DNA from: a virus
Reading direction: 5' to 3' (one strand)
Length of the DNA stretch: 64,000 nucleotides
Virus record (IMG/VR): IMGVR_UViG_3300032220_000872
Location: 1 to 64,000 of that record
Part shown: piece by piece, positions 37,773-63,902 of the stretch
How the letters are laid out: every line of letters starts with the position of its first letter
Numbering within the stretch: position 1 is the first letter of the stretch
Notes under the pieces: generated by a model
The model's input: the letters and a program-made list of their open reading frames with translations, nothing else
Told to the model about the DNA's origin: nothing
Databases searched by the model: none
Made by a program: the position numbers and the translations under genes

Positions 37773-37793
37773 AACTTGTAAGAGGAAAAAAAT

Positions 37794-39282: not shown

Positions 39283-39290
39283 CTTTTAAT

Positions 39291-40284: not shown

Positions 40285-40623
40285 ATGAATATGACAGACA
40301 TAGAAGATAGACTCAGTGCAGTCAATCAAATGGAAAATTTTAATAATCAGTTGCAGTTATTAAAAGACAAATTTGTGGACAGCAATATTTTGTTTTATCA
40401 AGGACATCAGTTCACAGTCACGGGCAATCTGTTGAGCTTGTGCAAGTCATACATAGACCTACATAGAACCAAAGATGTAGTATTATTGGATGACTATCAA
40501 ACACCAGTTTTGGTGAACAATTTGGAAGAATATAACTCTGCTGCTTGGCACACATATCAAACCAATCTCAATCAATATTACACAGAATATCAAACGCTGA
40601 TCAAAAATAAAGGACAGATTTAA
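40285..40623 (+). CDS. Small helical protein of unknown function
   Basis: 112 residues, first gene behind the sigma-70 promoter. AGGAG lies four bases before the ATG at 40285; a second ATG two codons later (40291) is an alternative. The protein is acidic and probably helical at both ends (DRLSAVNQMENFNNQLQLLK; WHTYQTNLNQYYTEYQTLIK), with a beta hairpin between (ILFYQGHQFTVTG, KDVVLLDDYQTPVLVNN). No family recognised. It is followed after three bases by the first glycosyltransferase-like gene. Confidence 0.6.
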   Translation: MNMTDIEDRLSAVNQMENFNNQLQLLKDKFVDSNILFYQGHQFTVTGNLLSLCKSYIDLHRTKDVVLLDDYQTPVLVNNLEEYNSAAWHTYQTNLNQYYTEYQTLIKNKGQI

Positions 40624-40626
40624 GCC

Positions 40627-41478
40627 ATGAAATCTCAAGGCATTGTGATGTTTGCTCACAACAATGAAACAGTTGATTACGTGAAGCAGGCTATTTTTGC
40701 TGCTGTGCAGGTCAAAAAACATCTACATCTACCAGTGACTTTGATCACTTCCAATCAAGCACATCTCAATAACAAATATAAAAAACAAGCCACAGTGTTT
40801 GATCAAGTGATAGATATCAATGAGCATCAAACTCATCAGACCAAAGATTTTTACAATGGTATGGAACACAAGATTAAAGATGTTTGGAAAAATCATTTGA
40901 GATCCACTGCTTATGAACTGACTCCATATGATGAAACCATTGTGATGGACACTGACTATATAGTGGGCAATGCCAATTTACTAAGATGTTTTCACAGCAA
41001 AGAAGATTTTTTAATACATCAGAAATCCATTTATATCAATTATTTCAATCAACCCGAATGGAAAATCAAATACATCAGTGAAACAGGCATGGAAATGTAT
41101 TGGGCCACTGTGTTCTATTTCAAAAAAACTCACAGAGTCAAACAATTGTTTGATCTGATTGCACACATTAAAAATCATTGGGACTTTTATAGATTCACAT
41201 GGCAGATACATGAACCAAATTTTAGAAATGATTTTGCTTTCAGCATGGCCATACACATGTTGAATGGATATTGCAAAGGTGCATGGCCACAACGCTTGCC
41301 AGATTCGTTGTATTATATCACTGACCGAGACAAAGCCGACAATTTCGACCAGGACTGTTGGACTGTTTCATTGTACAACACCCAAGGATATACAAAAACT
41401 TTAGCCAAACACATTAATCTACACGTGATGAACAAATTTAGTTTGGACCACATCATTGATCAGGAGTTTTCCAAATGA
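40627..41478 (+). CDS. GT-A fold glycosyltransferase-like protein
   Basis: 283 residues. The N-terminus (GIVMFAHNNETVDYVKQAIF) and YDETIVMDTDYIVGN, with D108-x-D110, show a nucleotide-sugar-binding GT-A fold like family GT8 and relatives; the D-x-D binds the metal and the sugar nucleotide. The next gene encodes a paralogue with the same plan. The C-terminal part with HINLHVMNK supplies a late histidine seen in retaining GT-A enzymes. Donor and acceptor are unknown. Membrane segments are absent, so it works in the cytoplasm. Its stop overlaps the next start by four bases. Confidence 0.58.
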   Translation: MKSQGIVMFAHNNETVDYVKQAIFAAVQVKKHLHLPVTLITSNQAHLNNKYKKQATVFDQVIDINEHQTHQTKDFYNGMEHKIKDVWKNHLRSTAYELTPYDETIVMDTDYIVGNANLLRCFHSKEDFLIHQKSIYINYFNQPEWKIKYISETGMEMYWATVFYFKKTHRVKQLFDLIAHIKNHWDFYRFTWQIHEPNFRNDFAFSMAIHMLNGYCKGAWPQRLPDSLYYITDRDKADNFDQDCWTVSLYNTQGYTKTLAKHINLHVMNKFSLDHIIDQEFSK

Positions 41479-42323
41479 TAGAACAAGGATTCTGTGTGTT
41501 TGCACAGCAAAATGAACAAGTGGACTATGTGAGACAAGCACATGCATTGGCCATGAGCATCAAAACGCACATGCCTCACAGCAAAATATGTTTGATCACA
41601 AATGTTAACATCACAAAAGCTGTGTCCTCAGTATTTGATCATGTGGTGGATATTCCTGGCATGGATGAAGCTGTGGATCAAGATTGGAAAATACAGAATA
41701 GATATAAAATTTACACAGCTACTCCTTTCAAACATTCAATAATATTGGATGCAGATATGTTGGTGTTGAATGATATCAGTCATTGGTGGAAGTTTTTAAA
41801 AAACTACAAAATGTATTTCACCAGTGCAGTTAAAAATTACAGAGATGAATTCAATCACAGTGATCACTATCGCAAAACTTTCACAAGCAATAGTCTACCT
41901 AATCTTTACTGTGGTGTGCATTACTATCAAAGATGCAAAGAAAATGATCAGTTTGTGGAACTTTTACGAGATATAGTGAGAAATCACACATTGTTCTATG
42001 ACAGATTCACTCCCAAACACACTCAAAAATGGTGCAGCATGGATGTGAGTGTGGCGCTGGCCAGTAAACTATTGGGTATCACTGAAAAAATTACCAGCCG
42101 AACACCTTACATCACATTCACTCATATGAAACCTCATCTTCAAGACTGGAAAACAGTGCCAGATCATTGGATGAAAAAAGTAAATGTGTATCATGACATG
42201 GAAGGTCATATTAAAATTGACAATTTTCGTCAACGTGGAGTATTGCATTATGTGGAGAATGAATTTTTAACTGATGAATTGTTTGAAATTATTGAAAAAA
42301 AATATTATGAATCAAACCAATAA
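41475..42323 (+). CDS. GT-A fold glycosyltransferase-like protein, paralogue of the preceding
   Basis: 282 residues. It shares GFCVFAQQNEQVDYVRQAHA at the N-terminus with the previous gene and has HSIILDADMLVLND with D92-A-D94, a typical GT-A metal site. A later ITFTHMKPHLQDW offers the C-terminal histidine. The pair probably arose by tandem duplication and diverged. It may act in successive sugar transfers. The start is coupled by ATGA overlap. Confidence 0.6.
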   Translation: MIEQGFCVFAQQNEQVDYVRQAHALAMSIKTHMPHSKICLITNVNITKAVSSVFDHVVDIPGMDEAVDQDWKIQNRYKIYTATPFKHSIILDADMLVLNDISHWWKFLKNYKMYFTSAVKNYRDEFNHSDHYRKTFTSNSLPNLYCGVHYYQRCKENDQFVELLRDIVRNHTLFYDRFTPKHTQKWCSMDVSVALASKLLGITEKITSRTPYITFTHMKPHLQDWKTVPDHWMKKVNVYHDMEGHIKIDNFRQRGVLHYVENEFLTDELFEIIEKKYYESNQ

Positions 42324-42885
42324 TTATATGTACGTGACATTTGATCCAGAATCAGGAAAAATTTTAGGCTGTTCAGGTAGCAAAACCAACAACAGTCTGG
42401 CCATAGATACTGCTTTAGGTGAAAAATTTATCATGGGTGCAGAGTCCATACACAAATACAAGGTGATATATCATAATGGTCAATATCAAATTCAAAAACA
42501 TGGAGTGTTAAACCCCGTGGAAAACGTAATTCATTCTAAAAAAACTGAAATAATCAATCAGAATATTTACAAAATTCCTAATAAAATTAAAACTCACAGT
42601 GGCATACAAATAAAATTGCATTTGAATCAAAACAAAATTGAATTTGTTGCGGACAAAATATTCAAAAAAACTTTGGAGACCATAGTTTCCAAAGAAAACC
42701 ATCGTACCCATAAGTTTTATTGTTGTAAACTCAACGATGCCACACAACTGATTCAAACATTGGATCTAAATCTTTATGAATTACTTACTCAAGACAGTGT
42801 GCAGATCGATATGAATGCAAAAACAAACATGGACATTTACTGTAGAAAGATTTTTGATTACTCTATTGAAAGGATTTATGCATAA
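42307..42885 (+). CDS. Unrecognised protein within the glycosyltransferase block
   Basis: 192 residues from ATG 42307, overlapping the preceding gene by 17 bases. The frame can be extended upstream, but only into the previous gene. The N-terminus MYVTFDPESGKILGCSGSKT (from residue 8) is a beta hairpin seen in some phage structural proteins. The rest is lysine/asparagine-rich with alternating strands (THSGIQIKLHLNQNKIEFVA). No catalytic motif is visible. It might be an acceptor or scaffold rather than an enzyme. Confidence 0.5.
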   Translation: MNQTNNYMYVTFDPESGKILGCSGSKTNNSLAIDTALGEKFIMGAESIHKYKVIYHNGQYQIQKHGVLNPVENVIHSKKTEIINQNIYKIPNKIKTHSGIQIKLHLNQNKIEFVADKIFKKTLETIVSKENHRTHKFYCCKLNDATQLIQTLDLNLYELLTQDSVQIDMNAKTNMDIYCRKIFDYSIERIYA

Positions 42886-43786
42886 GATTGCTATCAAAGA
42901 TTGTGATATTATATTTTTAAGTTATGATGAGCCCAATGCTGACAGAAATTATGCAGATTTAAAAAGAAAAATACCTTGGGCTAAAAGAGTTCACGGCGTG
43001 GAAGGGTCAGATGCTGCACACAAAGCCTGTGCTGCTGTGTCTGACACAGAATATTTTTTAACTGTGGATGGAGACACACAAATAGATTCTAAATTTCTTA
43101 ATGTTCAACTGGATCTCAACAGCATGGGCATGGATGATTCATACATCTTCAGCTGGTGTGGACATACCAATGTGAATGGATTGAAGTATGGCAATGGCAG
43201 TTTAAAGTTATGGACTAAAACTTTTGTGAATGAGATGAAAACACATGAAAATTACTCTGGTAAGGATAACAATGAGATAGAATTTTGTTATTTTGATAAA
43301 CTATTTCAATTCAATGAAAATTATTCTACCAGTTACATCAATAGCACACCCAAACAAGCATGGCGAGCTGGATTTAGAGAAGGCGTCAAAATGAGTTTGT
43401 ACAAAAATTTTAAAATACAGTCGTTGGACCAACTGTGGTGGCAAAATTATCATAGATTATTGATTTGGATGACTGTGGGTCAGGATGTGGAATATGGTAT
43501 TTGGGCTATTGCGGGAGCCAGAGAAGGATGCTACAGAACACTTTGCACCACATGGGATTTCAAACAAGTGAGAGATTTTAAAATTTTAGAACAATTATGG
43601 ATCAGTACCAGCAACAATAACAGCATGAATGCACAGGATGTCAAACAAAAATGTGTTTCTTTGGGCAAAATGATCAAAGAAAAATTCCAAATGGAATTTC
43701 CCACTGAACCATATGATGCAGAAAGCAGTGCATTTTTCAAAAAGGTATATATTAATTCACCTAGAACTATTAGAAAGACCATATGA
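42878..43786 (+). CDS. GT-A-like protein with V-D-G-D motif
   Basis: 302 residues from ATG 42878, chosen because AAGGA precedes it and because the paralogue downstream begins at the same point (DIIFLSYDEPNADRNYADLK against DIFFISYNEPNADQNYALLK). The sequence KRVHGVEGSDAAHKACA is followed by YFLTVDGDTQID with D64-G-D66, a nucleotide-sugar-binding D-x-D. The family is known from cyanophages and other marine phages without proven function. The end has a helical extension of about 60 residues. It overlaps the preceding gene by eight bases. Confidence 0.58.
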   Translation: MHKIAIKDCDIIFLSYDEPNADRNYADLKRKIPWAKRVHGVEGSDAAHKACAAVSDTEYFLTVDGDTQIDSKFLNVQLDLNSMGMDDSYIFSWCGHTNVNGLKYGNGSLKLWTKTFVNEMKTHENYSGKDNNEIEFCYFDKLFQFNENYSTSYINSTPKQAWRAGFREGVKMSLYKNFKIQSLDQLWWQNYHRLLIWMTVGQDVEYGIWAIAGAREGCYRTLCTTWDFKQVRDFKILEQLWISTSNNNSMNAQDVKQKCVSLGKMIKEKFQMEFPTEPYDAESSAFFKKVYINSPRTIRKTI

Positions 43787-44490
43787 TGTACGATATATTT
43801 TTTATCAGTTACAATGAACCCAACGCAGATCAAAATTATGCTCTGTTAAAACAAAGATTTCCATTGGCACAAAGAGTTCACGGTGTAAAAGGCATTCAAC
43901 AAGCACACATTAGAGCTGCCACGTTGAGTTTAACTCAAATGTTTTGGGTAGTGGACGGTGATGCTGTGGTTAAAGATGATTTTCAGTTTGATTATGAAGT
44001 GCCTGACAGAGACATGGATGCTGTGCATGTGTGGAGGAGTTCAAATCCCATCAACGAATTAGAATATGGTTACGGTGGAGTAAAATTATTGCCTAAAAAA
44101 TTAACCATGCATATGGATCCTAACAGAATAGACATGACCACCAGCATATCCAATAGATTTAGAGCCATGTACGAAGTATCCAACAGCACAGATTTCAACA
44201 CAGATCCATTCAACACATGGAAAAGTGCTTTCAGAGAGTGTGTCAAACTCAGCAGCAAAGTGATTGATCGTCAAGTGGACAAAGAAACTGAAAAAAGATT
44301 ATTGATCTGGTGCACAGTGGGTGCAGATCAACCATATGGAGAATATGCCATTGCTGGAGCACTGGCAGGCAGAGTGTATGGCACAGACAACAGAAGTAAT
44401 TCAGATGCTTTAAGAATGATCAATAATTTTGAATGGTTGCGATTGGCGTTTGTGGGACAATTTCCATACATGGAGAAAGAAATATTATGA
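43783..44490 (+). CDS. GT-A-like protein with V-D-G-D motif, paralogue
   Basis: 235 residues. It parallels the upstream gene: the N-terminal SYNEPNADQNYALLKQRFPL, AQRVHGVKG, FWVVDGDAVV (D58-G-D60), FNTWKSAFRECVKLS and RLLIWCTVGADQPYGEYAIA correspond in order. It lacks the C-terminal extension. Two ATGs (43783, 43786) are possible and overlap the upstream stop. With the pair at 40627 and 41475 this makes four GT-A-like proteins in two families, which suggests a multi-sugar product or several acceptors. Confidence 0.58.
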   Translation: MMYDIFFISYNEPNADQNYALLKQRFPLAQRVHGVKGIQQAHIRAATLSLTQMFWVVDGDAVVKDDFQFDYEVPDRDMDAVHVWRSSNPINELEYGYGGVKLLPKKLTMHMDPNRIDMTTSISNRFRAMYEVSNSTDFNTDPFNTWKSAFRECVKLSSKVIDRQVDKETEKRLLIWCTVGADQPYGEYAIAGALAGRVYGTDNRSNSDALRMINNFEWLRLAFVGQFPYMEKEIL

Positions 44491-45488
44491 TAGATTCTAA
44501 CATTCCATTTGATAAAATCATAAACTTTGGTCAACGCACCATGCTGGACAGCAAATTGTTTTCTGTGAGTTGGATCTTGGCTCGTTTTTGCAACTATGAT
44601 TGTTCTTATTGCTGGCCTTATGCCAAAAGCAAACAGAAAGATCACAGACCATTGTCAGTTTACACAGCAGTGGTGGATGAAATCAAGCGCCAGGCTAGAC
44701 TGAATGGATTCACAGACTATCATTTCAGTTTTTCAGGTGGAGAACCCACTGCCTACAAAGATTTTTTACAATTGGTACAGCATTACAGTGCTGATTCTGC
44801 TCCAGAATATCAGAGTATTCACATGACCACTAACCTAAGTCCTTCAGAAAAATGGTGGGAAAGATGGTTAGAAGCCACAAAATCATTAAACCGTCGCAGC
44901 ATCACTGCAAGTTTTCATGCTGAATTTGCTGATGAACAAAAATTTGGAGATAAAATATTACTGTTGATGAAGAACAATGTGTTTGTCACAATCAATCAAG
45001 TGATGGTGCCTAATAGATTCACAGAATACTATGACAGGTGTGCAAGATTTAATTCCAGAGGTATCAATGTCACACTCAAACCACAGAGTGATCCCACAGC
45101 AAGTTTTGTTGTTGAAGGTTATACTCCGGATCAACTGAATACTTTACAAACAGGTTTCCCTCAACGCATACAAGAAGGTGAAAATTACAAAAATTTATTT
45201 CAAATTGAAATGACGGATGCTCAAGGCAACAAGTATTACATGGATCAAGCAGAGAGATTTAATGCTTTTGGCTTTAATAAATTCAAAGGATGGCACTGTA
45301 ATGCTGGATATCAAAGTTGTGTCATAAGAGAACCAGGTGGAGAAGTCAAAAGAAGTTACAGTTGTCATGATGAACCACTGGGCAGCATAGAACAAGGATT
45401 TAAACTGTTTGATAAACCAAGAATTTGCATAACTCCCACTTGTGTGAGTTCAGCAGATTCAAAAATTCCCAAGGCCAAACATGTATAG
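44487..45488 (+). CDS. Radical SAM protein with SPASM-like C-terminus (family A)
   Basis: 333 residues from ATG 44487, with GGAGA upstream; earlier starts fall within the previous gene. The C-x3-C-x2-C cluster site is CNYDCSYC (C35, C39, C42), and the GGEP motif follows (FSGGEPTAYKD). The C-terminal part has GWHCNAGYQSC and further cysteines ending CITPTCVSS, as for auxiliary Fe-S clusters. Radical SAM enzymes cleave S-adenosylmethionine to a 5'-deoxyadenosyl radical. It shares its plan with the genes at 48322, 49214 and 53029-54075. Substrate unknown. Confidence 0.75.
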   Translation: MIDSNIPFDKIINFGQRTMLDSKLFSVSWILARFCNYDCSYCWPYAKSKQKDHRPLSVYTAVVDEIKRQARLNGFTDYHFSFSGGEPTAYKDFLQLVQHYSADSAPEYQSIHMTTNLSPSEKWWERWLEATKSLNRRSITASFHAEFADEQKFGDKILLLMKNNVFVTINQVMVPNRFTEYYDRCARFNSRGINVTLKPQSDPTASFVVEGYTPDQLNTLQTGFPQRIQEGENYKNLFQIEMTDAQGNKYYMDQAERFNAFGFNKFKGWHCNAGYQSCVIREPGGEVKRSYSCHDEPLGSIEQGFKLFDKPRICITPTCVSSADSKIPKAKHV

Positions 45489-46470
45489 ATATCAAGATAT
45501 AAAAGATATTCATTTGGAAATCACCAGCAAGTGTCAAGCCCGATGTCCTATGTGTCCCAGAAGAATCAGTGGAGGACCATTGAATCCATTTATCAAACTG
45601 GATGAGATAACTTTGGATGTATTTAAAAAATGGTTTGAACTGGATTTTATAAAACAATTGGACAGTTTGTTTATGTGCGGTAATTTGGGAGATCCTATCA
45701 TATCCAAAGACACATTGGAAATATATCAGTATTTGCGTGAAGCGAATCCCAATATTAGATTGGCCATGCACACCAACGGCAGTGCTAGAGATCCAGAATG
45801 GTGGCAAAGATTGGCTCAATTGAAAGTGAAAGTAACATTTGGCATTGATGGCCTGGCTGATACTCATCATCTTTATAGGATCAGTACAGATTTTAACAAA
45901 ATAATTGAAAATGCTCAAGCATTTATCTCAGCAGGTGGAGTGGCCAAATGGCACATGCTGGTGTTTGCTCACAATGAACATCAGATTGAAGAAGCAAGAA
46001 CTATGAGTAAACAAATGGGCTTTGTGGATTTTTCAATCAAACACACTTCTAGATTCAAACAAGATTATCTGCAAGTGATTGATGATATGGGTAGACCCAC
46101 ACACAGAATTCAACCCACTCAAACCAGTTTGGACATGATTCCTTTGGCTGAAGCAGCACAAAAAGAAGTCAAACCACACATTGTTTGTAAGGCACAAAAA
46201 TACAAACAGTTGTATGTGAGTGCGTGTGGCAATGTATCACCTTGCTGTTGGTTGGATATGGAATGGATACCTCCCATGCAAGAATCTAGAATAGATTACA
46301 TGGAAAAAATTTCAGAATTTCCCAACTTGCATCGTAAAACATTGAAAGAAATATTTGACGGTGGATTTTTTTCAAAAATAGAAGCACAATGGAGTACAGT
46401 GGGATTGAAAGAATGCACCAAACAATGCGGTTCATTTGATAAACTAGGAGTACAATTTGTTGAAAATTAA
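45481..46470 (+). CDS. Radical SAM/SPASM protein (family B)
   Basis: 329 residues. The cluster site CQARCPMC (C18, C22, C25) follows an EITSKC start, the form found in SPASM proteins of the MoaA/PqqE/anSME kind. In the middle is FMCGNLGDPIISKD, a variant of the GGEP loop, and later AMHTNGSARDPEWW. The C-terminus carries VSACGNVSPCCWLDMEW and CTKQCGSFD, enough cysteines for one or two auxiliary clusters. It begins inside the end of the preceding radical SAM gene (8-base overlap). Possible roles are peptide or sugar modification. Confidence 0.75.
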   Translation: MYRYQDIKDIHLEITSKCQARCPMCPRRISGGPLNPFIKLDEITLDVFKKWFELDFIKQLDSLFMCGNLGDPIISKDTLEIYQYLREANPNIRLAMHTNGSARDPEWWQRLAQLKVKVTFGIDGLADTHHLYRISTDFNKIIENAQAFISAGGVAKWHMLVFAHNEHQIEEARTMSKQMGFVDFSIKHTSRFKQDYLQVIDDMGRPTHRIQPTQTSLDMIPLAEAAQKEVKPHIVCKAQKYKQLYVSACGNVSPCCWLDMEWIPPMQESRIDYMEKISEFPNLHRKTLKEIFDGGFFSKIEAQWSTVGLKECTKQCGSFDKLGVQFVEN

Positions 46471-47071
46471 TATACAAGACGTTTTATTTTGGATGGATGC
46501 TATCAGACAATCTGATGATAGATATCGCACACTGGAAAGTTTTTGGAAAGGTCAAATCAACAGCAAAGTATGGTTGATTGAACAATTAAAAAAATTACCC
46601 AGAGCACACAGTATGGATATTTTAATTTGTGGTGGATGGTATGGAGTGATGGCCACACTTTTATTCAACAGTGATCTGTATGTGAACAAAATAACCAGCA
46701 TGGACATAGACAGCAAGTGTGAAAACACAGCAAACACCATGAACAAACAGTATGAAATCGCTGGAAGATTCCGTGCTGTCACTCAAGACATGATGACTTA
46801 TAAAGATTATGATCGTTATGACATGATTATTAACACAGTGTGTGAGCATTTGACAACAGAACAATACAATGAATGGTTGAATTTAATACCCAAAGACAAA
46901 ATTATTGTGTTGCAAAGCAATGACTATGTGATTCCTGAACATGTGAATCCCATGAAAGATTTAAATCAGTTTGTTTCACAAAGCAAACTGTATCCTATAA
47001 TGGAACCCAGCGAATTACAAACAGAAAAATACAAAAGATTTATGATTGTAGGAAAGAAAAATGAAAAATAA
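46457..47071 (+). CDS. Class I SAM-dependent methyltransferase-like protein
   Basis: 204 residues starting at TTG 46457, supported by AGGAG six bases upstream (46446-46450); no nearby ATG is possible. Motif I is MDILICGGWYGVMATLLF (residues 53-70). An acidic SMDIDSKCENTANTM follows for ribose binding, then YDMIINTVCEHL as motif IV. The fold fits a small-molecule or protein N/O-methyltransferase. It lies between two radical SAM genes and overlaps both, so its substrate is probably a pathway intermediate. Confidence 0.68.
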   Translation: MLKINIQDVLFWMDAIRQSDDRYRTLESFWKGQINSKVWLIEQLKKLPRAHSMDILICGGWYGVMATLLFNSDLYVNKITSMDIDSKCENTANTMNKQYEIAGRFRAVTQDMMTYKDYDRYDMIINTVCEHLTTEQYNEWLNLIPKDKIIVLQSNDYVIPEHVNPMKDLNQFVSQSKLYPIMEPSELQTEKYKRFMIVGKKNEK

Positions 47072-54075: not shown

Positions 54076-54088
54076 AGTATGGACAGAG

Positions 54089-54096
54089 TATTTATC
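54089..54096 (-). promoter_or_regulatory. Late promoter box GATAAATA (leftward)
   Basis: The plus strand reads TATTTATC. Transcription would begin near 54083, eight bases before the ATG at 54075. It stands back to back with the rightward box at 54125-54132. Confidence 0.55.
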
Positions 54097-54124
54097 GTAA
54101 TTAAATACCCACATAATATTTTGC

Positions 54125-54132: not shown

Positions 54133-54137
54133 TCAAT

Positions 54138-56002: not shown

Positions 56003-56003
56003 T

Positions 56004-57337: not shown

Positions 57338-57882
57338 AAATATTAATGACAGGGCATACATCTCCCATAGGTTCGGCGTTGTATGAACATTTTAAACATC
57401 AGGCACACGGTTGCAGTAGATCCAATGGTTATGACTTGACTCAACTGCAAGACATAGAGAAGATAGCTGAACTCAGCCTACAATACGATCATTTTTTAAA
57501 TTTAGCCCATGTGGGCACAGCTCAAACTCAATTGCTTAACTTGATACACAAGTCATGGACAAATAATAATAAGTGTGGTAAAATTGTTTCTTTTGGAACC
57601 TTAGGTACTGAATTGCCTTTAAAAATTTTACAAACTTTCAATACTCCAATGGAATATTTCAAACAAAAACAAACATTGGAAGCTGTGCATAGACGTTTGT
57701 GTGTTGAAAAACCATTTGGCCCACAACCACAAAGCATATTAATACGAATAATGAATTACGGTGTAAAAGTGGGTGAAAGATCTGGAGAGCCCAGTTGTGA
57801 CAGCAAAGATATCATACGTACTGTTGAATATGTGTTGAATGAATCTTGTTATATCAGCACAATTGATTTAAGAAAAATTTAA
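57334..57882 (+). CDS. Short-chain dehydrogenase/epimerase-like protein (NAD(P)-binding)
   Basis: 182 residues, short for the family. The N-terminal MKILMTGHTSPIGSALYEHF holds the Rossmann Gly-rich loop (G7...G13). FLNLAHVG corresponds to the N-A-G strand end, KIVSFGTLGTE to the serine strand, and Y108-x3-K112 (EYFKQKQTLE) to the catalytic pair. It would oxidise or reduce a hydroxyl/keto group, or epimerise a sugar. It is last in its rightward block and meets the convergent amidinotransferase gene with a four-base overlap. Confidence 0.6.
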   Translation: MKILMTGHTSPIGSALYEHFKHQAHGCSRSNGYDLTQLQDIEKIAELSLQYDHFLNLAHVGTAQTQLLNLIHKSWTNNNKCGKIVSFGTLGTELPLKILQTFNTPMEYFKQKQTLEAVHRRLCVEKPFGPQPQSILIRIMNYGVKVGERSGEPSCDSKDIIRTVEYVLNESCYISTIDLRKI

Positions 57883-58949
57883 ACTATTTGTCTTTTGGTT
57901 CCTTTGCGTTTGGTATCCAATGTAAAACAATGAATCCCACCTTCCCAATATACCTGATGTCTCTGATTGACCACGTGACATTCAATGCCTAAGGTTTTTA
58001 AATATCTAAAAAGTTCAGGAATATGTCTGCCAAACAATACATTTTTAGAATCCAATACCACCACATTTAAATCAAAACAAACTTCTTGATTGTATCCTCT
58101 CCAATTATTAAGATATTTTTCCAGCCATAACTCAGAATATTTTCCATCTGTGCTGACATAATCTTTCACATAATTGTCTATGTACACTTCTGAAACATAC
58201 TGTGAAATATCAATTAATTTCTTATTTTGTAATATTGTTGGAACCCATTTTAATCCACAATGCACCACAGTGTCGTCGTCCAGCATAAAAAATCCGTGAT
58301 CAATGTGCCCATAATTTTTAAATATGTTTTCAGGCAAATTGGGAATAAATTTATAAGAAGCATATATTTTTTTAATCCATTCATACCCCAATTGAGTTCC
58401 AGGACCTGCAGAATTCACAATAACGCTGTCGCCCAATTTATACATGGTAGCAGTGTGCCACAACAATTGTTCTTTATATGTGTCTTTGTAAATTTTATCT
58501 GATATAAACCAACTTTCTTCTGCGGTAATATTTCTCAATTGAGGAGCGGGCTGACAGTGTATTTGATAATTTTGTTCAGCAAAATAACTGAATATTTGTT
58601 TGTAACACAATACATCCAAATATCTATCAGAATAACTGGTATATGTTTGAGAGAATGTATTATCCATTACAAAATATTGATCACGTGGCACTATAGGACA
58701 CATAGGTACAGATATTTTTAAATCTCCTATTATTACAGGTGTATCGTATCTCAACACTGTGGGTCTAAGAACTTTTATGTTAGAATCTGTAAAAAATTTT
58801 GCTAAAGCATCAAGATCCTGTTTCGTTTCTTCAAGAATAAGATTAAATTTTTTTAAACAAGGTTGAGGTAAAAAATTATCTAAATCACCTGGTAGATAAC
58901 TGTCACCTACTATGATTTCCTGTAATTTATCATATTCGGTGAATATCAT
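57879..58949 (-). CDS. Amidinotransferase-family enzyme (glycine/inosamine amidinotransferase-like)
   Basis: 356 residues, the usual length of the family. It begins with EYDKLQEIIVGDS, then has CPIVPRDQYFVMDN (PRD 88-90) where the family has P-R-D. The catalytic set is GHIDHGFFMLDDDT (H215/H218, D217) and a C-terminal WEGGIHCFTLDTKRKG with C341 in the G-G-x-H-C-x-T context. L-arginine:glycine amidinotransferase and StrB-type inosamine-phosphate amidinotransferase move an amidino group through that cysteine. The acceptor cannot be told. Phages seldom carry such a gene. It ends a leftward block of six genes. Confidence 0.72.
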   Translation of the reverse strand: MIFTEYDKLQEIIVGDSYLPGDLDNFLPQPCLKKFNLILEETKQDLDALAKFFTDSNIKVLRPTVLRYDTPVIIGDLKISVPMCPIVPRDQYFVMDNTFSQTYTSYSDRYLDVLCYKQIFSYFAEQNYQIHCQPAPQLRNITAEESWFISDKIYKDTYKEQLLWHTATMYKLGDSVIVNSAGPGTQLGYEWIKKIYASYKFIPNLPENIFKNYGHIDHGFFMLDDDTVVHCGLKWVPTILQNKKLIDISQYVSEVYIDNYVKDYVSTDGKYSELWLEKYLNNWRGYNQEVCFDLNVVVLDSKNVLFGRHIPELFRYLKTLGIECHVVNQRHQVYWEGGIHCFTLDTKRKGTKRQIV

Positions 58950-59554
58950 TGTATTAGATGTGCATGATTGATAAACATCTGCAAAGAATATCTGGTCACT
59001 GTGCTGTTGGAAATTTGTGTGACTGCATGCACTTGGTCTTTAGAATTGATTATTATTCTATTTTTTTTAGGTTCTACAAATATTCCTTGTGTGTCATTAT
59101 CTTGTTCTTTGTACACAAATAATCCACCGTTGTCCGAATTCCAATCATTTAAAAATATTGTTATGCCAACATAATCCACACCACCGTCTTTTTCATAAAG
59201 TCCATCTTTGTGCCATGTGGCTCTGTAAGGAGCAGTGTTCACATGATATCTCAACATGCAGTCTTTGGATTTAAACCCTTCCTCTGTTAGATGTTTTTTA
59301 TCATATAAATTTTTTAAAATAATATCCACTGCGGTATTTTTTAAAAGATAATATCTGCAATTATCCAATCCAAAATGTTCATTTTCTATTAACAATAAAT
59401 TTTTATCTTCGAGTCCATCATGATCACTTTCCGTTGGAGCATGATGTTGTTCTTTGTAGAACAATTCACGATTTTCCATTGTGATTTCGTTGTCAATAAC
59501 TTGCTTCAACTGTTCTAATGTCTGCTCATCAAAAAAATTATCTATTATTTTCAT
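58946..59554 (-). CDS. Prolyl-4-hydroxylase-like 2-oxoglutarate/Fe(II) oxygenase
   Basis: 202 residues. The motif YRATWHKDGLYEKDGG gives H115-K-D117, then VGITIFLNDWNSDNGGLFVY, NRIIINSKDQVHAVTQI (H176) and R188 in TRYSLQMF. This is the standard order for the 2OG-FeII_Oxy family. It has no signal peptide and is soluble. Possible substrates are free amino acids, peptides or nucleotides. It overlaps both neighbours by four bases, which ties it to the amidinotransferase and aminotransferase. Confidence 0.75.
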   Translation of the reverse strand: MKIIDNFFDEQTLEQLKQVIDNEITMENRELFYKEQHHAPTESDHDGLEDKNLLLIENEHFGLDNCRYYLLKNTAVDIILKNLYDKKHLTEEGFKSKDCMLRYHVNTAPYRATWHKDGLYEKDGGVDYVGITIFLNDWNSDNGGLFVYKEQDNDTQGIFVEPKKNRIIINSKDQVHAVTQISNSTVTRYSLQMFINHAHLIQ

Positions 59555-60657
59555 AAATTACTCAAGTCGTTTGCTAATATTTTAAAATATTCTTTGTTAG
59601 CATTCAAAGGCATCTGATATAGATTTTTATATTCTCTTTTTTGAACCATGTACATACTGCCGTATGTGTTCAGTATAGTAACTCCATTGTTTTTAAAACA
59701 TTCAGTGGCTTGCTGTTGCACTTGTTTAAAATTGGACAATGTTTGTTCTTTCTGCAGTATATCAATGTATTTCAAAGCACTGTAGACACCTGATAGACTG
59801 AAATTGTATGTGAATCCGTGATCCCAATCAAAGTCTTTGGGCAGCACCTCATGCAGTTTTTCATTGTACAGCATCATGCTGAGTGGAAAATATCCTGCAG
59901 TAATGGCCTTGCCCATGGTGAATATGTCCGGCTGCAAAGGTATACTGTGATATCCAAAATAGTCACCTGTTTTTCCACCACCCACAAATATATCATCCAA
60001 GATAATCAACACGTCATGTTCTTGTTGTAGATGTTGTAGTTTTTTCCAAAACTCCACTGAGTTGGATTCCATATTGCCACCATAAGAACAGGTTTCCACA
60101 ACCACTGCCATCACTTCACTCCAATCGGTATGAGTGATATCAAAAGATCGTGGCAATCTTTGGATGGCTGAATATTTGGGCAGATTATAAAATGGATTTT
60201 TAAATAGTAAATCACCCATGTTATAATTTAAAAACGTGCTGCCGTGATAACTGCCTTCAAAACTGATTATTTTTGTTTTTTTTATATTTTTTTTAATATG
60301 ATGATAGGCAGCTGCCAACTTTACGGCACCTTCATTGGCATCACTGCCACTGAGAGCAAATACACTTCTGTAGCCATTGCTCATAGAGTATAAAGTGCTG
60401 CTCAATTGATAGGTGGCATCGTTCAATCTTAATTTTTCGTACTCCAGCACTGATTCAGCTATTTCAGGTTTTTTATTTTTCATTTCATTGCACACATAAT
60501 CCACTATATCGTCACGCTGAAATCCCAACACAAAGCAGCCATAATGCAACAAAGGATCCACAGTTTTACAATTATTTTCAATCACACCAAATTGCCAGTG
60601 TGCTGCTTCTTTGTGTGTAGACTGCTGTCTGCCAGGTATAAGTCCTTTGAGAGTCAT
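59551..60657 (-). CDS. Class III PLP-dependent aminotransferase
   Basis: 368 residues. Motifs in order: ALSGSDANEGAVKLAAAYHH (phosphate-binding S-G-S-D-A-N-E), EGSYHGST, VLIILDDIFVGGGKTGDYFG (D221/D222 for the pyridine nitrogen) and MGKAITAGYFPLSMM with K250 as Schiff-base lysine. These define the omega/ornithine-type aminotransferases, including glutamate-1-semialdehyde 2,1-aminomutase. The protein lacks about 50 residues at the N-terminus compared with typical 420-residue members. It would interconvert a carbonyl and an amine in the pathway product. Confidence 0.82.
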   Translation of the reverse strand: MTLKGLIPGRQQSTHKEAAHWQFGVIENNCKTVDPLLHYGCFVLGFQRDDIVDYVCNEMKNKKPEIAESVLEYEKLRLNDATYQLSSTLYSMSNGYRSVFALSGSDANEGAVKLAAAYHHIKKNIKKTKIISFEGSYHGSTFLNYNMGDLLFKNPFYNLPKYSAIQRLPRSFDITHTDWSEVMAVVVETCSYGGNMESNSVEFWKKLQHLQQEHDVLIILDDIFVGGGKTGDYFGYHSIPLQPDIFTMGKAITAGYFPLSMMLYNEKLHEVLPKDFDWDHGFTYNFSLSGVYSALKYIDILQKEQTLSNFKQVQQQATECFKNNGVTILNTYGSMYMVQKREYKNLYQMPLNANKEYFKILANDLSNL

Positions 60658-60665
60658 ATTTTTAA

Positions 60666-61208
60666 TTATAGTATTTCAAATTGCAATTGATCGTATGTGA
60701 TGACAGAAGTGTTATCAAAAACTTTTTTGGTTTGCACACTGAAACAACAATAACCGCTGGCATCTATTAGATCCTTGAAATTTATGTTTTGATTTTGCCC
60801 TTGATGATATTCTTTGCCCACTGTGTGAGTGTATTGATTACATTTTACTGTGATGCAATAGTCATCCGACACATGTTCACTGCCTTGCACACCGTTCAGT
60901 CTGATCAACTGCACATGACTTTGATACAGATAGTTTATTGGTTTGAGACTCCATATAATTTTAGCCTGCTCTTCAACCGAATGAAATTTAATATCATAAT
61001 GGAATTCAAAAACATTGATAATATTTTTATCCAACACAATAGACTTTTCTAATATTATAGGTAGATTTTCCTCTGCATCATCAATATTGGTGAATATTTT
61101 TTGTGTGTTATGGTAAACGTCTAACTTGTTGATGTAATTGTCGTGTTGACGAGACATGTATCTTTTGTTAAGATCTTTGGGGCAGGTAATACGCACGGTT
61201 CTATTCAT
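60666..61208 (-). CDS. Unrecognised beta-rich protein in the amidinotransferase block
   Basis: 180 residues from ATG 61208, overlapping the previous stop by eight bases; the longer frame lies within that gene. It starts MNRTVRITCPKDLNKRYMSR and has strands (IINVFEFHYDIKFHSVEEQA; IIWSLKPINYLYQSHVQLI). Two cysteines (YCCFS) and no catalytic motif are evident. It is separated by eight bases from the aminotransferase gene downstream. Confidence 0.48.
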   Translation of the reverse strand: MNRTVRITCPKDLNKRYMSRQHDNYINKLDVYHNTQKIFTNIDDAEENLPIILEKSIVLDKNIINVFEFHYDIKFHSVEEQAKIIWSLKPINYLYQSHVQLIRLNGVQGSEHVSDDYCITVKCNQYTHTVGKEYHQGQNQNINFKDLIDASGYCCFSVQTKKVFDNTSVITYDQLQFEIL

Positions 61209-61794
61209 GGATATAATCTTTGAATATTTGCACAGCTTCTTCAAATTGTAGATGTGTGTTATCTAATTTTAATAGAGTAAAGCATAATGTCCAACGATCT
61301 TCAGTCATGTTGGGATTGAATGTGCTGTGCAATTGTCCTATGTTCATTAGGCTGGGTTGATTGATCACTTGTTCATGCATCAGATCACAATCTTCTTCAC
61401 GTGCTGTATAAGCATCTGTGATCACTATATCGGACACTAACCCTGCAGCTGATATGTGACGATTGTCTGGTTTGACTGGTTTTAGATATTCTGGTTGTTT
61501 CACACGCCACCATCTGGTTACACTGTTGTCTGGACCCCAAGTAAAATTTATTTTAGTAGCATTACACAGTGTGGGGGTGTCATTATGCATGGGTATCTTC
61601 CCACCATTTGTGGGAGTATAAAATCCTTCCATAAGATTGGAAACCTTTACACCGTGCAGTTGAATCCAATCGATAACACGTGTGTCAACGTATTGTGAAT
61701 CTACCAACACAATATCAGCATGATCTAAAGTTTTAAAACAATCAGGTTTTTTCACTGTGAAAGGCAGTTGTAGATATCTATGATAGATGTTCAT
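61201..61794 (-). CDS. 2-oxoglutarate/Fe(II) oxygenase-like protein, small
   Basis: 197 residues. The possible metal site is KIPMHNDTPTLCNATKINF (H70-N-D72), followed far on by NIGQLHSTFNPNMTEDRWTL (H156 and R167). It has the H-x-D...H...R order with a beta-helix between. A run KPVKPDNRHISAAGLVSDIV is unusual. The assignment is less sure than for its neighbours. The start is one base after the preceding gene. Confidence 0.48.
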   Translation of the reverse strand: MNIYHRYLQLPFTVKKPDCFKTLDHADIVLVDSQYVDTRVIDWIQLHGVKVSNLMEGFYTPTNGGKIPMHNDTPTLCNATKINFTWGPDNSVTRWWRVKQPEYLKPVKPDNRHISAAGLVSDIVITDAYTAREEDCDLMHEQVINQPSLMNIGQLHSTFNPNMTEDRWTLCFTLLKLDNTHLQFEEAVQIFKDYIHE

Positions 61795-61795
61795 T

Positions 61796-62602
61796 TTAGT
61801 AATTTTGTAGATGTTCTATGCCTAATTTTTTTCTAAATTCATCTGTGAACACACAATCAATTCGTAATCCGTACTCTTGTTCACGATTGATTTCACCACC
61901 ATGCCAGTCTTGGTCGTTCCAGAAAGCTGCATTGGCATTGATGTAGGTTTTGTTCTTGGACTCAGGATCCCAAATATAGAATCCTCTTTTAGTATTGTGA
62001 CGTATGTGTATGAACTCATTGCGATGATCACTGTAGCCTTGTTGATCGCCCAGTTTACCATCCAAATCTCTGTGTTCAAAAGGCTGTCCGTCATGCTCAC
62101 AGTGAAAGAATATCACTCTACCTATCTGACTAATAATGTTTTGATTCATAAGATTTTTAACCCATGTGACTAATCCAGGAAAGTATTTGGATTCTTCTGT
62201 GAGATTTCTTTCTGAATTTCTATGATCCCAATCTCCTTCGTTCCATAAAAAATAATATATGTAAGGATCTTTAGCACCCAGCACTGCTTTGAGATAGCGT
62301 GTGAATTGATTGCGTGTGCGATAGTCTTTGATGTTGTTCATCAAATCATCACCGTGCTGTCTTATGGGATGATTCTCTGGCAAGGCTTTGTATTCTGCCA
62401 GTGCTTGATAGATTGGTTTCCAATTGAGAGTATAGCTCATGTCTTTGATGTTGAATCCTGGTGACATCCATGTGCCTTCTTTGGCATATTCTCTAGCCAA
62501 AGCAAATCCTCGACAAATTTCAGGATGTAATTTCCTAAAACCTTCTATATCCAAATGTGGAGTTAAATCAATATATGGTCGACCACCAATTCCTCTTATC
62601 AT
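61796..62602 (-). CDS. 2-oxoglutarate/Fe(II) oxygenase-like protein, paralogue of 56004-56759
   Basis: 268 residues. It shares IRGIGGRPYIDL with KGVYGKPYICMD, TEESKYFPGLVTWVKNL with TEESKYFPSLVDWAKKL, FEHRDLDG (H177-R-D179) with KHRD, AFWNDQDWHGG (H234) with FYWNNHDWHGG, and R247. It heads the leftward block 62602-57879. A late-type box ACTAAATA ends five bases before its ATG and there is no ribosome binding site. Confidence 0.58.
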   Translation of the reverse strand: MIRGIGGRPYIDLTPHLDIEGFRKLHPEICRGFALAREYAKEGTWMSPGFNIKDMSYTLNWKPIYQALAEYKALPENHPIRQHGDDLMNNIKDYRTRNQFTRYLKAVLGAKDPYIYYFLWNEGDWDHRNSERNLTEESKYFPGLVTWVKNLMNQNIISQIGRVIFFHCEHDGQPFEHRDLDGKLGDQQGYSDHRNEFIHIRHNTKRGFYIWDPESKNKTYINANAAFWNDQDWHGGEINREQEYGLRIDCVFTDEFRKKLGIEHLQNY

Positions 62603-62605
62603 TCA

Positions 62606-62625
62606 AATATTTAGTGTTAAATATT
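62606..62625. promoter_or_regulatory. Palindromic divergent promoter region
   Basis: AATATTTA-GTGT-TAAATATT, two 8-base arms and a 4-base spacer. The left arm read leftward gives ACTAAATA (62615-62608) for the oxygenase gene at 62602; the right arm gives GTTAAATA (62616-62623) for the gene starting at 62642. Both are late-like boxes. Confidence 0.45.
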
Positions 62626-62641
62626 GTGGACAAAAATATTT

Positions 62642-63214
62642 ATGAATTACAAATTGGTACCATATTCTGAATCAATTGATTTGACAGAATTTTATCTTCA
62701 AGCGGAATCCAAAGGGTTCAAAAACAACAGCAGCAAAAAAATGTTGGTGGACAGTGTCTCCACAGAACGACTTTCACGTGTCTGGATTCTCTATTACAAC
62801 AATGAAATAGTTGGTACCACTGCTGCTCACAGTTTTGATGAAATGGGACCAAATTGTTTTCGTATTGCTGTGAGATCTTGTGCGTTCACAGATCGTATGC
62901 CCATTAAAAGAGTAAGAACCCGAACGGGAATAGTCGAACATCAGCATGTGAGTCCACAATTTTTTATGACTGCTGGCATAGAATGGGCAGGCAAAGATAA
63001 AAATTTTTATATCACTTCAAACAAAAACAGCTGGGGCACTCAACAGAGAGTTCACAGAACTTGGGCTCCCATATTGGCCAAAACAGGTTGTTTGGAGCAC
63101 TGTGGTGAAATGTTTTACAGAGGAACCGAACAAACCATTTGGAAAGTGAACGTAGAAGTGTTCTATCAACAATTGGATCAATACGGCAGATGGCCTATTG
63201 ATTGGACTTTATAA
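62642..63214 (+). CDS. Acetyltransferase-like (GNAT-resembling) protein of unknown function
   Basis: 190 residues from ATG 62642; a TTG at 62624 would extend it by six residues into the promoter arm. The sequence WILYYNNEIVGTTAAHSF looks like strands 2-4 of a GNAT fold, and RIAVRSCAFTDRMPIKRVRT might hold the phosphate loop, but the usual R/Q-x-x-G-x-G/A is absent. The rest (NFYITSNKNSWGTQQRVHRT) is unlike GNATs. I have seen similar frames in marine phages, without function. Its end overlaps the convergent desaturase by 20 bases. Confidence 0.45.
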   Translation: MNYKLVPYSESIDLTEFYLQAESKGFKNNSSKKMLVDSVSTERLSRVWILYYNNEIVGTTAAHSFDEMGPNCFRIAVRSCAFTDRMPIKRVRTRTGIVEHQHVSPQFFMTAGIEWAGKDKNFYITSNKNSWGTQQRVHRTWAPILAKTGCLEHCGEMFYRGTEQTIWKVNVEVFYQQLDQYGRWPIDWTL

Positions 63215-63902
63215 GTCGAATAAAAAATCCAGACAAATCCGGAAAAGGATTACGCCAAGCAGTGGAATTGATGTGATGATATTTGTGCCATCCTTCACCA
63301 GCCACAGTCCATGCTATTAATTTGCTGTCAGACACTTCACCATTCCAATGATTGAAAACATTCACTATGCCACCCATGACCACACTCAACACTGTGGGAA
63401 ACACCCACAAAGGAAAAATCAATATGGGGTTAATAATAGCCAATAATACAATATAAAAAGATAACAGTTTAAAATAATGTTTATGAACAAATTTATGTTC
63501 AGAATATTTTAAAAGTCTTGCTGCATATCTAGGTTCCACATCATAAGCATCAAAGAAATATCCAAAAAATACTTTGAAGTGTCCTTTGAATTTGGGAGAG
63601 TGTGAATCTTGTTCAGTGTCAGAAAATCTATGATGTTTCAAATGCACAGCAGTCCACGCCACAGTGGAACCTAAGGTGACTATGCTGCTGCAGAACAATA
63701 AAAAATAATGCCAAAATTTATTTGTGTTGAAACTTTTATGAGTGAAGTATCTGTGCAGTCCTATGATGTGTCCAAACACTGCCAGCAAATAGCCAATGAT
63801 TAAACAGTATATCAGTGTGACAAGTGGTAAAAAAACAAGACTGATAAAAAATAAAAACCATCCGATAGAATGAAATACCAATAATTTTTTATTGTCTGAC
63901 AT
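63195..63902 (-). CDS. Fatty acid (acyl-CoA delta-9 type) desaturase
   Basis: 235 residues. Three histidine boxes are present: LHRYFTH (H50-x4-H55), HLKHH (87-91) and HKYHH (206-210). Two pairs of membrane spans lie before box 1, between 60 and 85, and between 145 and 182. These bind the di-iron centre that inserts a double bond in acyl chains. The protein lacks the long cytoplasmic tail of cellular enzymes and is somewhat short. It may change membrane fluidity of the infected cell or act on an acyl group of the pathway product. Confidence 0.85.
   Translation of the reverse strand: MSDNKKLLVFHSIGWFLFFISLVFLPLVTLIYCLIIGYLLAVFGHIIGLHRYFTHKSFNTNKFWHYFLLFCSSIVTLGSTVAWTAVHLKHHRFSDTEQDSHSPKFKGHFKVFFGYFFDAYDVEPRYAARLLKYSEHKFVHKHYFKLLSFYIVLLAIINPILIFPLWVFPTVLSVVMGGIVNVFNHWNGEVSDSKLIAWTVAGEGWHKYHHINSTAWRNPFPDLSGFFIRLIKSNQ

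What the first reader, a model, noticed from the sequence alone, without database searches (positions are those of the whole stretch)
40285..63902. Dense phage-borne biosynthetic island of unknown product
More than 20 enzyme-like genes in 23.6 kb, mostly with overlapping starts and stops: four glycosyltransferase-like, seven radical SAM, six 2-oxoglutarate oxygenase-like, methyltransferase, SGNH hydrolase, PP-loop ATPase, kinase-like, dehydrogenase, aminotransferase, amidinotransferase and desaturase. Such a combination is known from natural-product and surface-glycan loci, not as a whole from phages. It may remodel the host surface, decorate the virion or make a small molecule.
Basis: partly seen in the sequence, partly recalled or inferred. 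Interest (0 to 1): 0.85.

Follow-up and report, generated by a model that had tools for sequence, protein, structure and literature searches.

The report
Jumbo-phage radical-SAM biosynthetic module
Many uncultured giant bacterial viruses carry the same tightly packed block of about 20 enzymes of unusual chemistry, part of which also sits in chromosomes of predatory-type bacteria; it probably builds and attaches an unusual sugar-like decoration on the cell surface or the virus, but the product is unknown.

Summary
The island is real, runs past the window end to ~65.8 kb, and is under purifying selection. The record (83.8 kb) is a fragment of a jumbo myophage of the Atu_ph07/RaK2 lineage. Seven radical-SAM (rSAM) genes in the window are confirmed, with an eighth just beyond. 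Also supported: six 2OG oxygenases, a true amidinotransferase, a class-III aminotransferase and GT-A glycosyltransferases. The two 'kinases' lack kinase catalytic residues.

The genes are not a random collection. A core (rA-MT-rB-rG-rF | rD-rC | OX1-K1-OX2 ... OX6-K2-u5) recurs, largely collinear, in most of 15 related phage contigs. In 62 loci found with OX6 alone, K2 accompanies it in all 62. The block sits behind tail fibres plus GT1-4 in some phages and elsewhere in others. Its rA-rB-rG-GT3/GT4-MT subset also forms small cassettes in Bdellovibrionota chromosomes.

Best explanation: a dedicated glycan-type pathway that radically modifies and transfers a sugar-like group, for host-surface or receptor remodelling (virion decoration is the main rival). 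The product is unproven. Phage rSAM/amidinotransferase modules have precedents (Campylobacter phages, pelagimyophages, an Aeromonas jumbo phage), so this is a new, larger, conserved variant of a known kind.

The parts
33548..40190 (+). four tail-fibre-like genes TF1-TF4 immediately upstream (context)
   Evidence: PHROGs tail/tail fibre hits for TF1 (33548-35572) and TF3 (37794-39230); TF2 paralogous to TF1; TF4 precedes u1-GT1 in relatives
40285..40623 (+). u1, 112-aa protein between TF4 and GT1, position conserved
   Evidence: no family
40627..42323 (+). GT1 and GT2 (40627-41478, 41475-42323), paralogous GT8-like glycosyltransferases with DxD
   Evidence: profile weakly matches glycogenin, E 0.006; phrog_1903 for GT2
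42274..42885 (+). u2, unknown, only in nearest relatives
42815..44490 (+). GT3 and GT4 (likely start of GT3 at 42878), paralogous GT-A glycosyltransferases; homologues sit in Bdellovibrionota rA-rB-rG cassettes
   Evidence: AF2 pLDDT 87.2; Foldseek: PBCV-1 glycosyltransferase 2p6w E 7.5e-5 prob 1.00, SunS/ThuS, WrtF
44433..45488 (+). rA, radical SAM enzyme (likely start 44487), signature CNYxCSYCWPYA
   Evidence: PF04055 51.4 bits; 59% identity or more in 13 other phage contigs; 22/369 Bdellovibrionota
45481..46470 (+). rB, radical SAM/SPASM
   Evidence: PF04055 + SPASM; in 34/35 rF-seeded loci
46457..47071 (+). MT, methyltransferase-like, conserved next to rA
   Evidence: motifs only; alignment A1; rA-MT within 2 genes in 12/13 contigs
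47061..48329 (+). rC, N-terminal-twitch radical SAM (NF033640)
   Evidence: 321.5 bits vs cut-off 170
48313..49224 (+). rD, radical SAM
   Evidence: 59.6 bits; rD-rC adjacent in 14/14 contigs
49214..50194 (+). rE, radical SAM, paralogue of rF, only in nearest relatives
   Evidence: 39.8 bits
50152..50844 (+). SGNH-hydrolase-like protein, accessory
   Evidence: motif only
50810..52228 (-). rG, N-terminal-twitch radical SAM (NF033640)
   Evidence: 387 bits vs cut-off 170; in all 16 contigs
52215..53135 (-). PPL, PP-loop ATPase with C-terminal CGxCFWCxER (likely start 53036)
   Evidence: alignment A6; relatives match PP-loop family weakly; QueC phrog E 2.4e-5 but not Pfam QueC
53029..54114 (-). 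rF, radical SAM
   Evidence: 48.8 bits; 58 viral loci
54138..54833 (+). OX1, Asp/Asn beta-hydroxylase-like 2OG oxygenase
   Evidence: PDB beta-hydroxylase 7v4f E 5.5e-19; HxD..H in 13/13
54802..55461 (+). K1, protein related to K2 (kinase-fold, apparently inactive)
   Evidence: blastp to K2 25%; alignment A8
55454..56002 (+). OX2, 2OG-oxygenase-like
   Evidence: HxD..H in 19/19; no family hit
56004..56759 (+). OX3, 2OG-oxygenase-like, paralogue of OX6
56756..57337 (+). u3, unknown, only in nearest relative
57334..57882 (+). SDR-type dehydrogenase-like
   Evidence: motif; in 53/62 OX6 loci
57879..58949 (-). AGAT, amidinotransferase (Cys-His-Asp residues invariant)
   Evidence: StrB1 1bwd E 4.8e-71; A9
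58946..59554 (-). OX4, 2OG-Fe(II) oxygenase
   Evidence: PF13640 E 3.8e-9
59551..60657 (-). AT, class-III aminotransferase, paired with AGAT in all 6 contigs having both
   Evidence: PF00202 E 3e-41
60666..61794 (-). u4 (60666-61244, unknown) and OX5 (61201-61794, 2OG-like)
61796..62602 (-). OX6, strongly conserved phage-only 2OG-oxygenase-like protein
   Evidence: 59-68% identity in distant phages (A4); 405 viral stretches; 0/369 Bdellovibrionota
62624..63214 (+). u5, unknown conserved partner of K2
   Evidence: K2-u5 within 2 genes in 11/11 contigs
63195..63902 (-). DES, fatty-acid-desaturase-like (His boxes), accessory
   Evidence: motif; only W, G012, G014
63982..64000 (+). K2, kinase-fold protein lacking kinase catalytic residues; starts here, continues to record 64671, followed by rH (rSAM, HMPTM zinc ribbon) to record 65822
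   Evidence: AF2 pLDDT 88.8, Foldseek kinase fold prob 1.00; rH PF04055 + PF23545

Best explanation
The block is one dedicated biosynthetic module of a widespread jumbo-myophage lineage. During infection its radical-SAM, 2OG-oxygenase, methyltransferase and nitrogen-adding enzymes (class-III aminotransferase, amidinotransferase, PP-loop ATPase) build or remodel a sugar-like group. GT-A glycosyltransferases encoded next to the tail fibres attach it to a glycan, most likely on the host envelope, changing the receptor or excluding other phages. Shown: gene identities as graded above, conserved co-occurrence and order, purifying selection, retained rSAM and 2OG metal-binding motifs, a cellular counterpart of the core (rA, rB, rG, GT3/GT4, MT) in Bdellovibrionota, and no peptide precursor gene seen inside the block. 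Inferred: that the enzymes act in one pathway, that the substrate is a glycan, that the target is the host surface, and that the kinase-like proteins are inactive scaffold or binding proteins.
For: Conserved module in most of 15 related contigs, 7 or more rSAM genes in nearly all of them; module genes more conserved than the baseplate wedge (e.g. rA 65-66% and OX6 60-68% vs gp6 46% in G006/G012). OX6-seeded loci: K2 62/62, OX2 58, OX1 57; dereplicated 31/31, 29, 28. rF-seeded loci: rB, rD, rG, MT 34/35, rA 32/35. Tail fibre-GT1-GT2 always adjacent where present. Bdellovibrionota cassettes pair rA-rB-rG with GT3/GT4 and MT; some lie near further GT2 glycosyltransferases or a QueC-like PP-loop gene. 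GT3 has a GT-A fold. Catalytic motifs kept in all rSAM and in OX1/OX2/OX6 families; dN/dS low. Precedent of GT+rSAM cassettes in host-recognition clusters of pelagimyophages (PMC7029224).
Against: In several phages (G006, G008, G010, G016, G021, G022) the rSAM block lies away from tail fibres and GTs on the fetched sequence, and in G006 GT1-4 stay with the tail fibres 70 kb off. No nucleotide-sugar synthesis, flippase or polymerase gene was recognised in the block. No enzyme has a substrate assigned; four oxygenases, MT, SGNH and SDR rest on motifs. Similar rSAM-rich modules in Campylobacter phages were not linked to glycans (PMC2853527).
Confidence: 0.4

Rival explanations
1. Virion decoration: the enzymes modify and glycosylate the phage's own tail fibres or other virion proteins, altering adsorption or shielding.
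For: TF4-u1-GT1-GT2 adjacency in every contig that has them, with GT4-rA within two genes in six of eight. The best fold match of GT3 is a viral glycosyltransferase described as acting on the PBCV-1 major capsid, and SunS/ThuS are peptide glycosyltransferases, though all similarities are weak. SPASM/twitch rSAM and Asp beta-hydroxylases often act on proteins (general knowledge).
Against: The rSAM block is separated from tail genes in several phages, and its core exists in Bdellovibrionota chromosomes among housekeeping genes with no phage tail.
Confidence: 0.22
2. A soluble small molecule (for example a guanidino or amino-sugar compound) that acts on host metabolism or competitors.
For: Amidinotransferase closest to StrB1/HsvA/SxtG natural-product enzymes; AT-AGAT pair in 6 of 6 contigs with both; radical and 2OG tailoring chemistry.
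Against: AT and AGAT are absent from about half of the contigs while the core stays; no NRPS/PKS, exporter or resistance gene was recognised in the block; no RiPP precursor.
Confidence: 0.15
3. Peptide or protein modification outside the virion (RiPP-like or host protein), with rSAM/SPASM and twitch enzymes as maturases and kinase-fold proteins as leader or substrate binders.
For: Three SPASM/twitch rSAM enzymes and two kinase-fold proteins without catalytic residues.
Against: No ORF under 120 aa and no large gap in the module of W, G002, G008 or G022; G005 has one 613-nt gap. No rSAM here reaches any RiPP maturase cut-off among the listed hits.
Confidence: 0.1
4. Nucleic-acid hypermodification to evade host defence (7-deazaguanine-like chemistry).
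For: FolE and QueE lie about 10 kb downstream, a QueD-like gene occurs in G006, G008 and G012, PPL resembles QueC weakly.
Against: No Pfam QueC in seven records; PPL is absent from G012, which has QueD; FolE/QueE lie outside the module and rA/rB/rG/GT also form cellular cassettes.
Confidence: 0.08
5. A hypervariable cargo region in which unrelated enzymes accumulate without a joint function.
For: Accessory genes (AT, AGAT, SGNH, DES, u3, u4, rE) come and go between close relatives; such regions are described as hypervariable in T4-like marine phages.
Against: Core families co-occur and keep order in most contigs and evolve under strong constraint.
Confidence: 0.05

Closest known systems
Interchangeable radical-SAM/amidinotransferase module of Campylobacter phages CP220, CPt10 (PMC2853527) and F379
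   Same: several tandem rSAM genes plus one amidinotransferase (F379 also a nucleotide-sugar-transferase-like gene) near tail genes; function unknown; first noted as highly unusual
   Different: rSAM proteins only superfamily-related (18-85 bits against the HMMs; in-family scores are several hundred); no OX6, K1/K2, u5 or twitch rSAM detected; smaller
Host recognition cluster of pelagimyophages and cyanomyophages (PMC7029224)
   Same: large island next to tail fibres with glycosyltransferases and rSAM gene cassettes; proposed surface change and coinfection avoidance
   Different: different phage lineage, T4-like flanks (VrlC-gp14) not seen here; GT3, K2, OX6 and rA have no match in 50,697 phage records
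Aeromonas jumbo phage vB_AerVM_332-Vera (PMC12390700) and Vibrio phage K566
   Same: jumbo phages with several clustered rSAM genes; in 332-Vera they lie in a structural-gene cluster
   Different: 332-Vera is assigned to the Chimallinviridae family in the paper; K566 rSAMs score only 47-87 bits and no other module gene was detected there
Bdellovibrionota chromosomal cassettes rA-rB-rG-GT3/GT4-MT
   Same: orthologous core enzymes at about 49-58% identity (rA), often adjacent, sometimes with a QueC-like PP-loop gene
   Different: OX6 not found; small and cellular; found in about 6% of the phylum's genomes searched
NCBIfam NF033640 twitch domain-containing radical SAM protein
   Same: rC and rG are full members by score
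   Different: the family has no assigned function; the other six rSAMs fall below its cut-off or are not listed as matches

Membership tests
NF033640 N_Twi_rSAM | score above curated cut-off 170 over the full model | tested here: met
   rC 321.5 bits, rG 387 bits; rA, rB, rE, rF below cut-off, rD and rH without a listed match
Radical SAM superfamily (PF04055) | CX3CX2C cluster motif and score over cut-off | tested here: met
   7 in window + 1 beyond; motif in every family member examined
Amidinotransferase (AGAT/StrB1) | sequence homology over the domain with Cys-His-Asp catalytic residues | tested here: met
   E 4.8e-71 to 1bwd; H215, D217, C341 invariant
Active protein kinase | catalytic Asp (HRD) and DFG Asp | tested here: not met
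   fold met, but aligned residues are Ser and Asn in K2
Pelagimyophage host recognition cluster | variable island with tail fibres and glycosyltransferases | tested here: met
Pelagimyophage host recognition cluster | location between VrlC and neck gene gp14 in a T4-like pelagimyophage | tested here: not met
   right flank is tail-fibre-like, VWA, AAA and exonuclease genes; nearest baseplate wedge is in Atu_ph07/RaK2-type jumbo phages
Campylobacter-phage rSAM/amidinotransferase module | several rSAM genes clustered with an amidinotransferase near tail genes | tested here: met
Campylobacter-phage rSAM/amidinotransferase module | orthologous rSAM enzymes | tested here: not met
   only superfamily-level scores; the amidinotransferase is related (122 bits)
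RiPP gene cluster | precursor peptide gene in the cluster | tested here: not met
   no ORF of 60-119 aa in the module of five contigs; largest gap 79 nt in the window, one 613-nt gap in G005; a precursor elsewhere or under 60 aa is not excluded
7-deazaguanine DNA modification | FolE, QueD, QueE, QueC set | tested here: inconclusive
   FolE and QueE in the record, QueD in three relatives, QueC in none
7-deazaguanine DNA modification | DNA transglycosylase DpdA and modified virion DNA | not tested
   records are fragments; chemistry not testable here
Surface-glycan biosynthesis locus | glycosyltransferases clustered with sugar-modifying enzymes | tested here: inconclusive
   GTs supported but no nucleotide-sugar, flippase or polymerase gene recognised; substrates unknown

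The most novel reading that the evidence does not exclude
A conserved jumbo-phage-specific pathway makes a previously undescribed glycan or conjugate by serial radical-SAM and 2OG chemistry, with kinase-fold proteins lacking catalytic residues as dedicated scaffolds. Its core is shared with Bdellovibrionota, which may be hosts of these phages or the other partner in gene exchange.
Probability: 0.25. Interest if true: 0.85.

Novelty: new variant of a known kind. Interest (0 to 1): 0.63.

Why it matters
Clustered radical-SAM genes in phages have been noted since 2010 without explanation. This case gives a defined, conserved gene set with a minimal core (rA, rB, rG, GT3/GT4, MT) that also exists in bacterial chromosomes, so a long-standing puzzle can be tested with five or six proteins instead of a whole phage. 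If the glycan reading holds, it would be a new radical-chemistry route to surface or virion decoration in widespread aquatic giant phages, and it points to Bdellovibrionota as a lineage linked to them.

Tried and rejected
Pfam and PHROGs left most non-rSAM genes unnamed, and Pfam on relatives did not help. PDB profile searches for u5, OX6, OX2 and GT3/4 gave nothing usable. RiPP cluster rejected for lack of a precursor, with the limits stated. QueC identity of the PP-loop protein not supported by Pfam. 'Kinase' as an active enzyme rejected. 'Random cargo' rejected for the core. Host assignment from the five non-Bdellovibrionota MAG hits was rejected: L192 carries phage genes (s1, s2, VWA at 507 bits) and L180, L187, L188, L190 group with it in the rA tree, so they look like binned-in phage contigs. 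Bdellovibrionota as hosts was considered, but no OX6 was found in 369 genomes (the empty answer had no positive control) and the rA tree does not give a direction of transfer, so it stays a hypothesis. Literature searches for jumbo phages of Bdellovibrio or for twitch rSAM in phages returned nothing relevant.


Full report
What was checked. The window is bases 1-64000 of an 83,837-base IMG/VR virus record. I read the remaining 20 kb as L009 and L010. The block does not stop at 63902: a kinase-like gene (K2, record 63982-64671) and an eighth radical-SAM gene (rH, 64674-65822) follow before a tail-fibre-like gene on the other strand. 23 of 31 junctions overlap and the largest gap is 79 nt.

What the virus is. 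The left part of the record carries gp46/gp47-like recombination genes, the late sigma factor gp55, a tail lysozyme/hub protein and a baseplate wedge protein. That wedge protein matches jumbo phages Atu_ph07, Salicola SCTP-2, XaC1 and RaK2-type phages at about 34-36% identity over most of its length. The record is therefore a fragment of a jumbo myophage, probably several hundred kilobases when whole; a relative contig carrying the module, G012, is 353 kb.

Gene identities. Seven radical-SAM genes in the window exceed the Pfam cut-off. rC and rG are members of NF033640, radical-SAM proteins with an N-terminal twitch domain and no known function. rH carries the zinc ribbon of HMPTM-type enzymes. 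The amidinotransferase is firm (StrB1 E 5e-71) and the class-III aminotransferase is firm (E 3e-41). OX1 matches a solved beta-hydroxylase (E 5.5e-19) and OX4 matches PF13640; the other four oxygenases are called from the HxD...H motif. GT3 was modelled with pLDDT 87 and its best structural neighbours are GT-A glycosyltransferases, led by a chlorovirus PBCV-1 enzyme. GT1/GT2 are weakly like glycogenin. K2 was modelled with pLDDT 88.8 and has a protein-kinase fold, but the residues aligned to the catalytic Asp and the DFG Asp of TTK are Ser and Asn, so I call K2, and by homology K1, apparently inactive kinase-fold proteins. Methyltransferase, SGNH, SDR and desaturase rest on motifs alone.

Is it a unit? 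A search with rF alone brought 58 viral loci. Of the 22 large contigs behind them that were searched, 21 carry 7-13 radical-SAM matches and one carries two. I fetched 15 of these contigs, in whole or in large part, called ORFs with a simple script and assigned them with profiles built from reciprocal best hits. The same core recurs with conserved order: rA, MT, rB, rG, rF, then rD and rC, then OX1, K1, OX2, and further on OX6, K2, u5, often rH. rD-rC are neighbours in 14 of 14 contigs, K2-u5 in 11 of 11, rA-MT in 12 of 13, AT-AGAT in 6 of 6. An independent search with OX6 alone found 405 viral stretches. Among the 62 retrieved loci of at least 15 kb, K2 is present in 62, OX2 in 58, OX1 in 57, SDR in 53, u5 in 52, K1 and rC in 51, PPL in 49; after dereplication at 90% identity the picture is unchanged (31 loci). 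Conservation is unusually high for a phage 'cargo' region: rA is 65-66% and OX6 60-68% identical to G006/G012, whose baseplate wedge is only 46% identical. dN/dS against the nearest relatives is 0.03-0.27 for every gene tested and catalytic motifs are kept.

Two modules, not one. Wherever both are present, tail fibre TF4 is followed by GT1 and GT2, and GT3 follows GT2. In the window's closest relatives and in G012 the rSAM block begins directly behind GT4; in G006 the tail fibres and GT1-4 are at 63-77 kb and the rSAM block at 145-161 kb. In G009, G010, G016, G021 and G022 the block sits beside a gene for translation initiation factor IF-1. So the rSAM block is a unit that can occupy different places, and the tail-fibre/GT unit is separable from it.

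A cellular counterpart. A scan of 84,980 bacterial and archaeal species with the rA alignment gave 23 loci. Seventeen are labelled as Bdellovibrionota (Bdellovibrionales, Bdellovibrionia, Bacteriovoracaceae, Halobacteriovoraceae, Oligoflexia), one (L174) is an unnamed bacterium that groups with Halobacteriovoraceae and Bacteriovoracaceae in the rA tree, and five are marine MAG contigs labelled otherwise that look like binned-in phage DNA (L192 carries this phage lineage's VWA gene). In chromosomal loci the neighbours of rA are rB and rG, with GT3/GT4 and MT, in short cassettes among ordinary genes: for example L179 has GT4-rG-rA-rB beside unrelated chromosomal genes, and L182 has rA-rB-(inserted transposase-like gene)-rG-GT4-GT3. 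L171 adds a QueC-like PP-loop gene and a family-2 glycosyltransferase. A direct survey found rA in 22 of 369 Bdellovibrionota genomes and in 1 of 398 Pseudomonadota genomes, the one being a suspected phage-containing MAG used as the centre of that search; some of the 22 are the genomes that seeded the search. OX6 was not found in the phylum. The rA tree separates most phage sequences from the Bdellovibrionota group, which has the marine-MAG (phage-like) group inside or beside it; supports are moderate and the root is not fixed, so the direction of exchange is open.

How it most likely works. Because GT3/GT4 stay with rA-rB-rG in bacteria and with tail fibres in phages, a glycan-type pathway is the most economical reading: radical-SAM and oxygenase steps alter a sugar-like group, optional aminotransferase and amidinotransferase add nitrogen functions, and GT-A enzymes transfer it. 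The target may be the host envelope (receptor change, exclusion of other phages) or the virion. The absence of any ORF of 60-119 aa, and of large gaps except one of 613 nt in G005, speaks against a peptide natural product encoded in the block. A nucleic-acid role is not favoured: FolE and QueE lie outside the block and QueC was not detected in seven records. None of these steps is biochemically shown.

Comparison with what is known. Campylobacter phages CP220 and CPt10 have an interchangeable cluster with five rSAM genes and a putative glycine amidinotransferase (PMC2853527), and F379 shows a similar layout near tail genes; their rSAMs are only superfamily-level relatives (F379 tested). Pelagimyophages have a host recognition cluster with glycosyltransferases and rSAM cassettes (PMC7029224). 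Aeromonas phage 332-Vera has eight rSAM genes inside a structural cluster, called highly unusual (PMC12390700). rA, OX6, GT2, GT3 and K2 have no match in 50,697 phage records. The kind is therefore known but unexplained; this is a larger, more conserved variant with a cellular core.

Limits. Contigs are fragments, gene starts were not curated, profile families of paralogous rSAMs can be confused at low scores, some MAG labels may be wrong, and all function is inferred from sequence.

Noticed in passing
window 18214-32907: A 14.7-kb gene for a 4897-aa protein between the baseplate wedge and tail fibres carries a chitin-type carbohydrate-binding module (PF02839, two stretches) and an FG-GAP repeat; possibly a giant receptor-binding or tail protein.
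   Followed up: partly
L009:11391-13304 (record 74390-76303): QueE-like and FolE genes in the record; a QueD-like (PTPS) gene in G006, G008 and G012, but no QueC in seven records: an incomplete 7-deazaguanine set.
   Followed up: partly
L162:6606-6824 (G022) and homologues in G009, G010, G016, G021, G012, G013: Phage-encoded translation initiation factor IF-1 (PF01176 E 3e-18 in G022), in five contigs next to the rSAM block.
   Followed up: partly
L009:17977-19765 (record 80976-82764): Overlapping pair of a GroES-like alcohol dehydrogenase and a Gfo/Idh/MocA oxidoreductase, conserved in G001, G002 and G006.
   Followed up: no
L180, L187, L188, L190, L192: Contigs of marine MAGs labelled Rickettsiales, Gammaproteobacteria, Chloroflexi and Acidimicrobiaceae carry rSAM genes, several in large arrays; L192 also carries phage genes, so these are probably mis-binned jumbo-phage DNA.
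   Followed up: partly
L171, L186, L189: Bdellovibrionota chromosomes contain their own larger clusters of twitch rSAM paralogues beside the rA-rB-rG cassette, with glycosyltransferase, aminotransferase-like or SGNH-like genes nearby.
   Followed up: no
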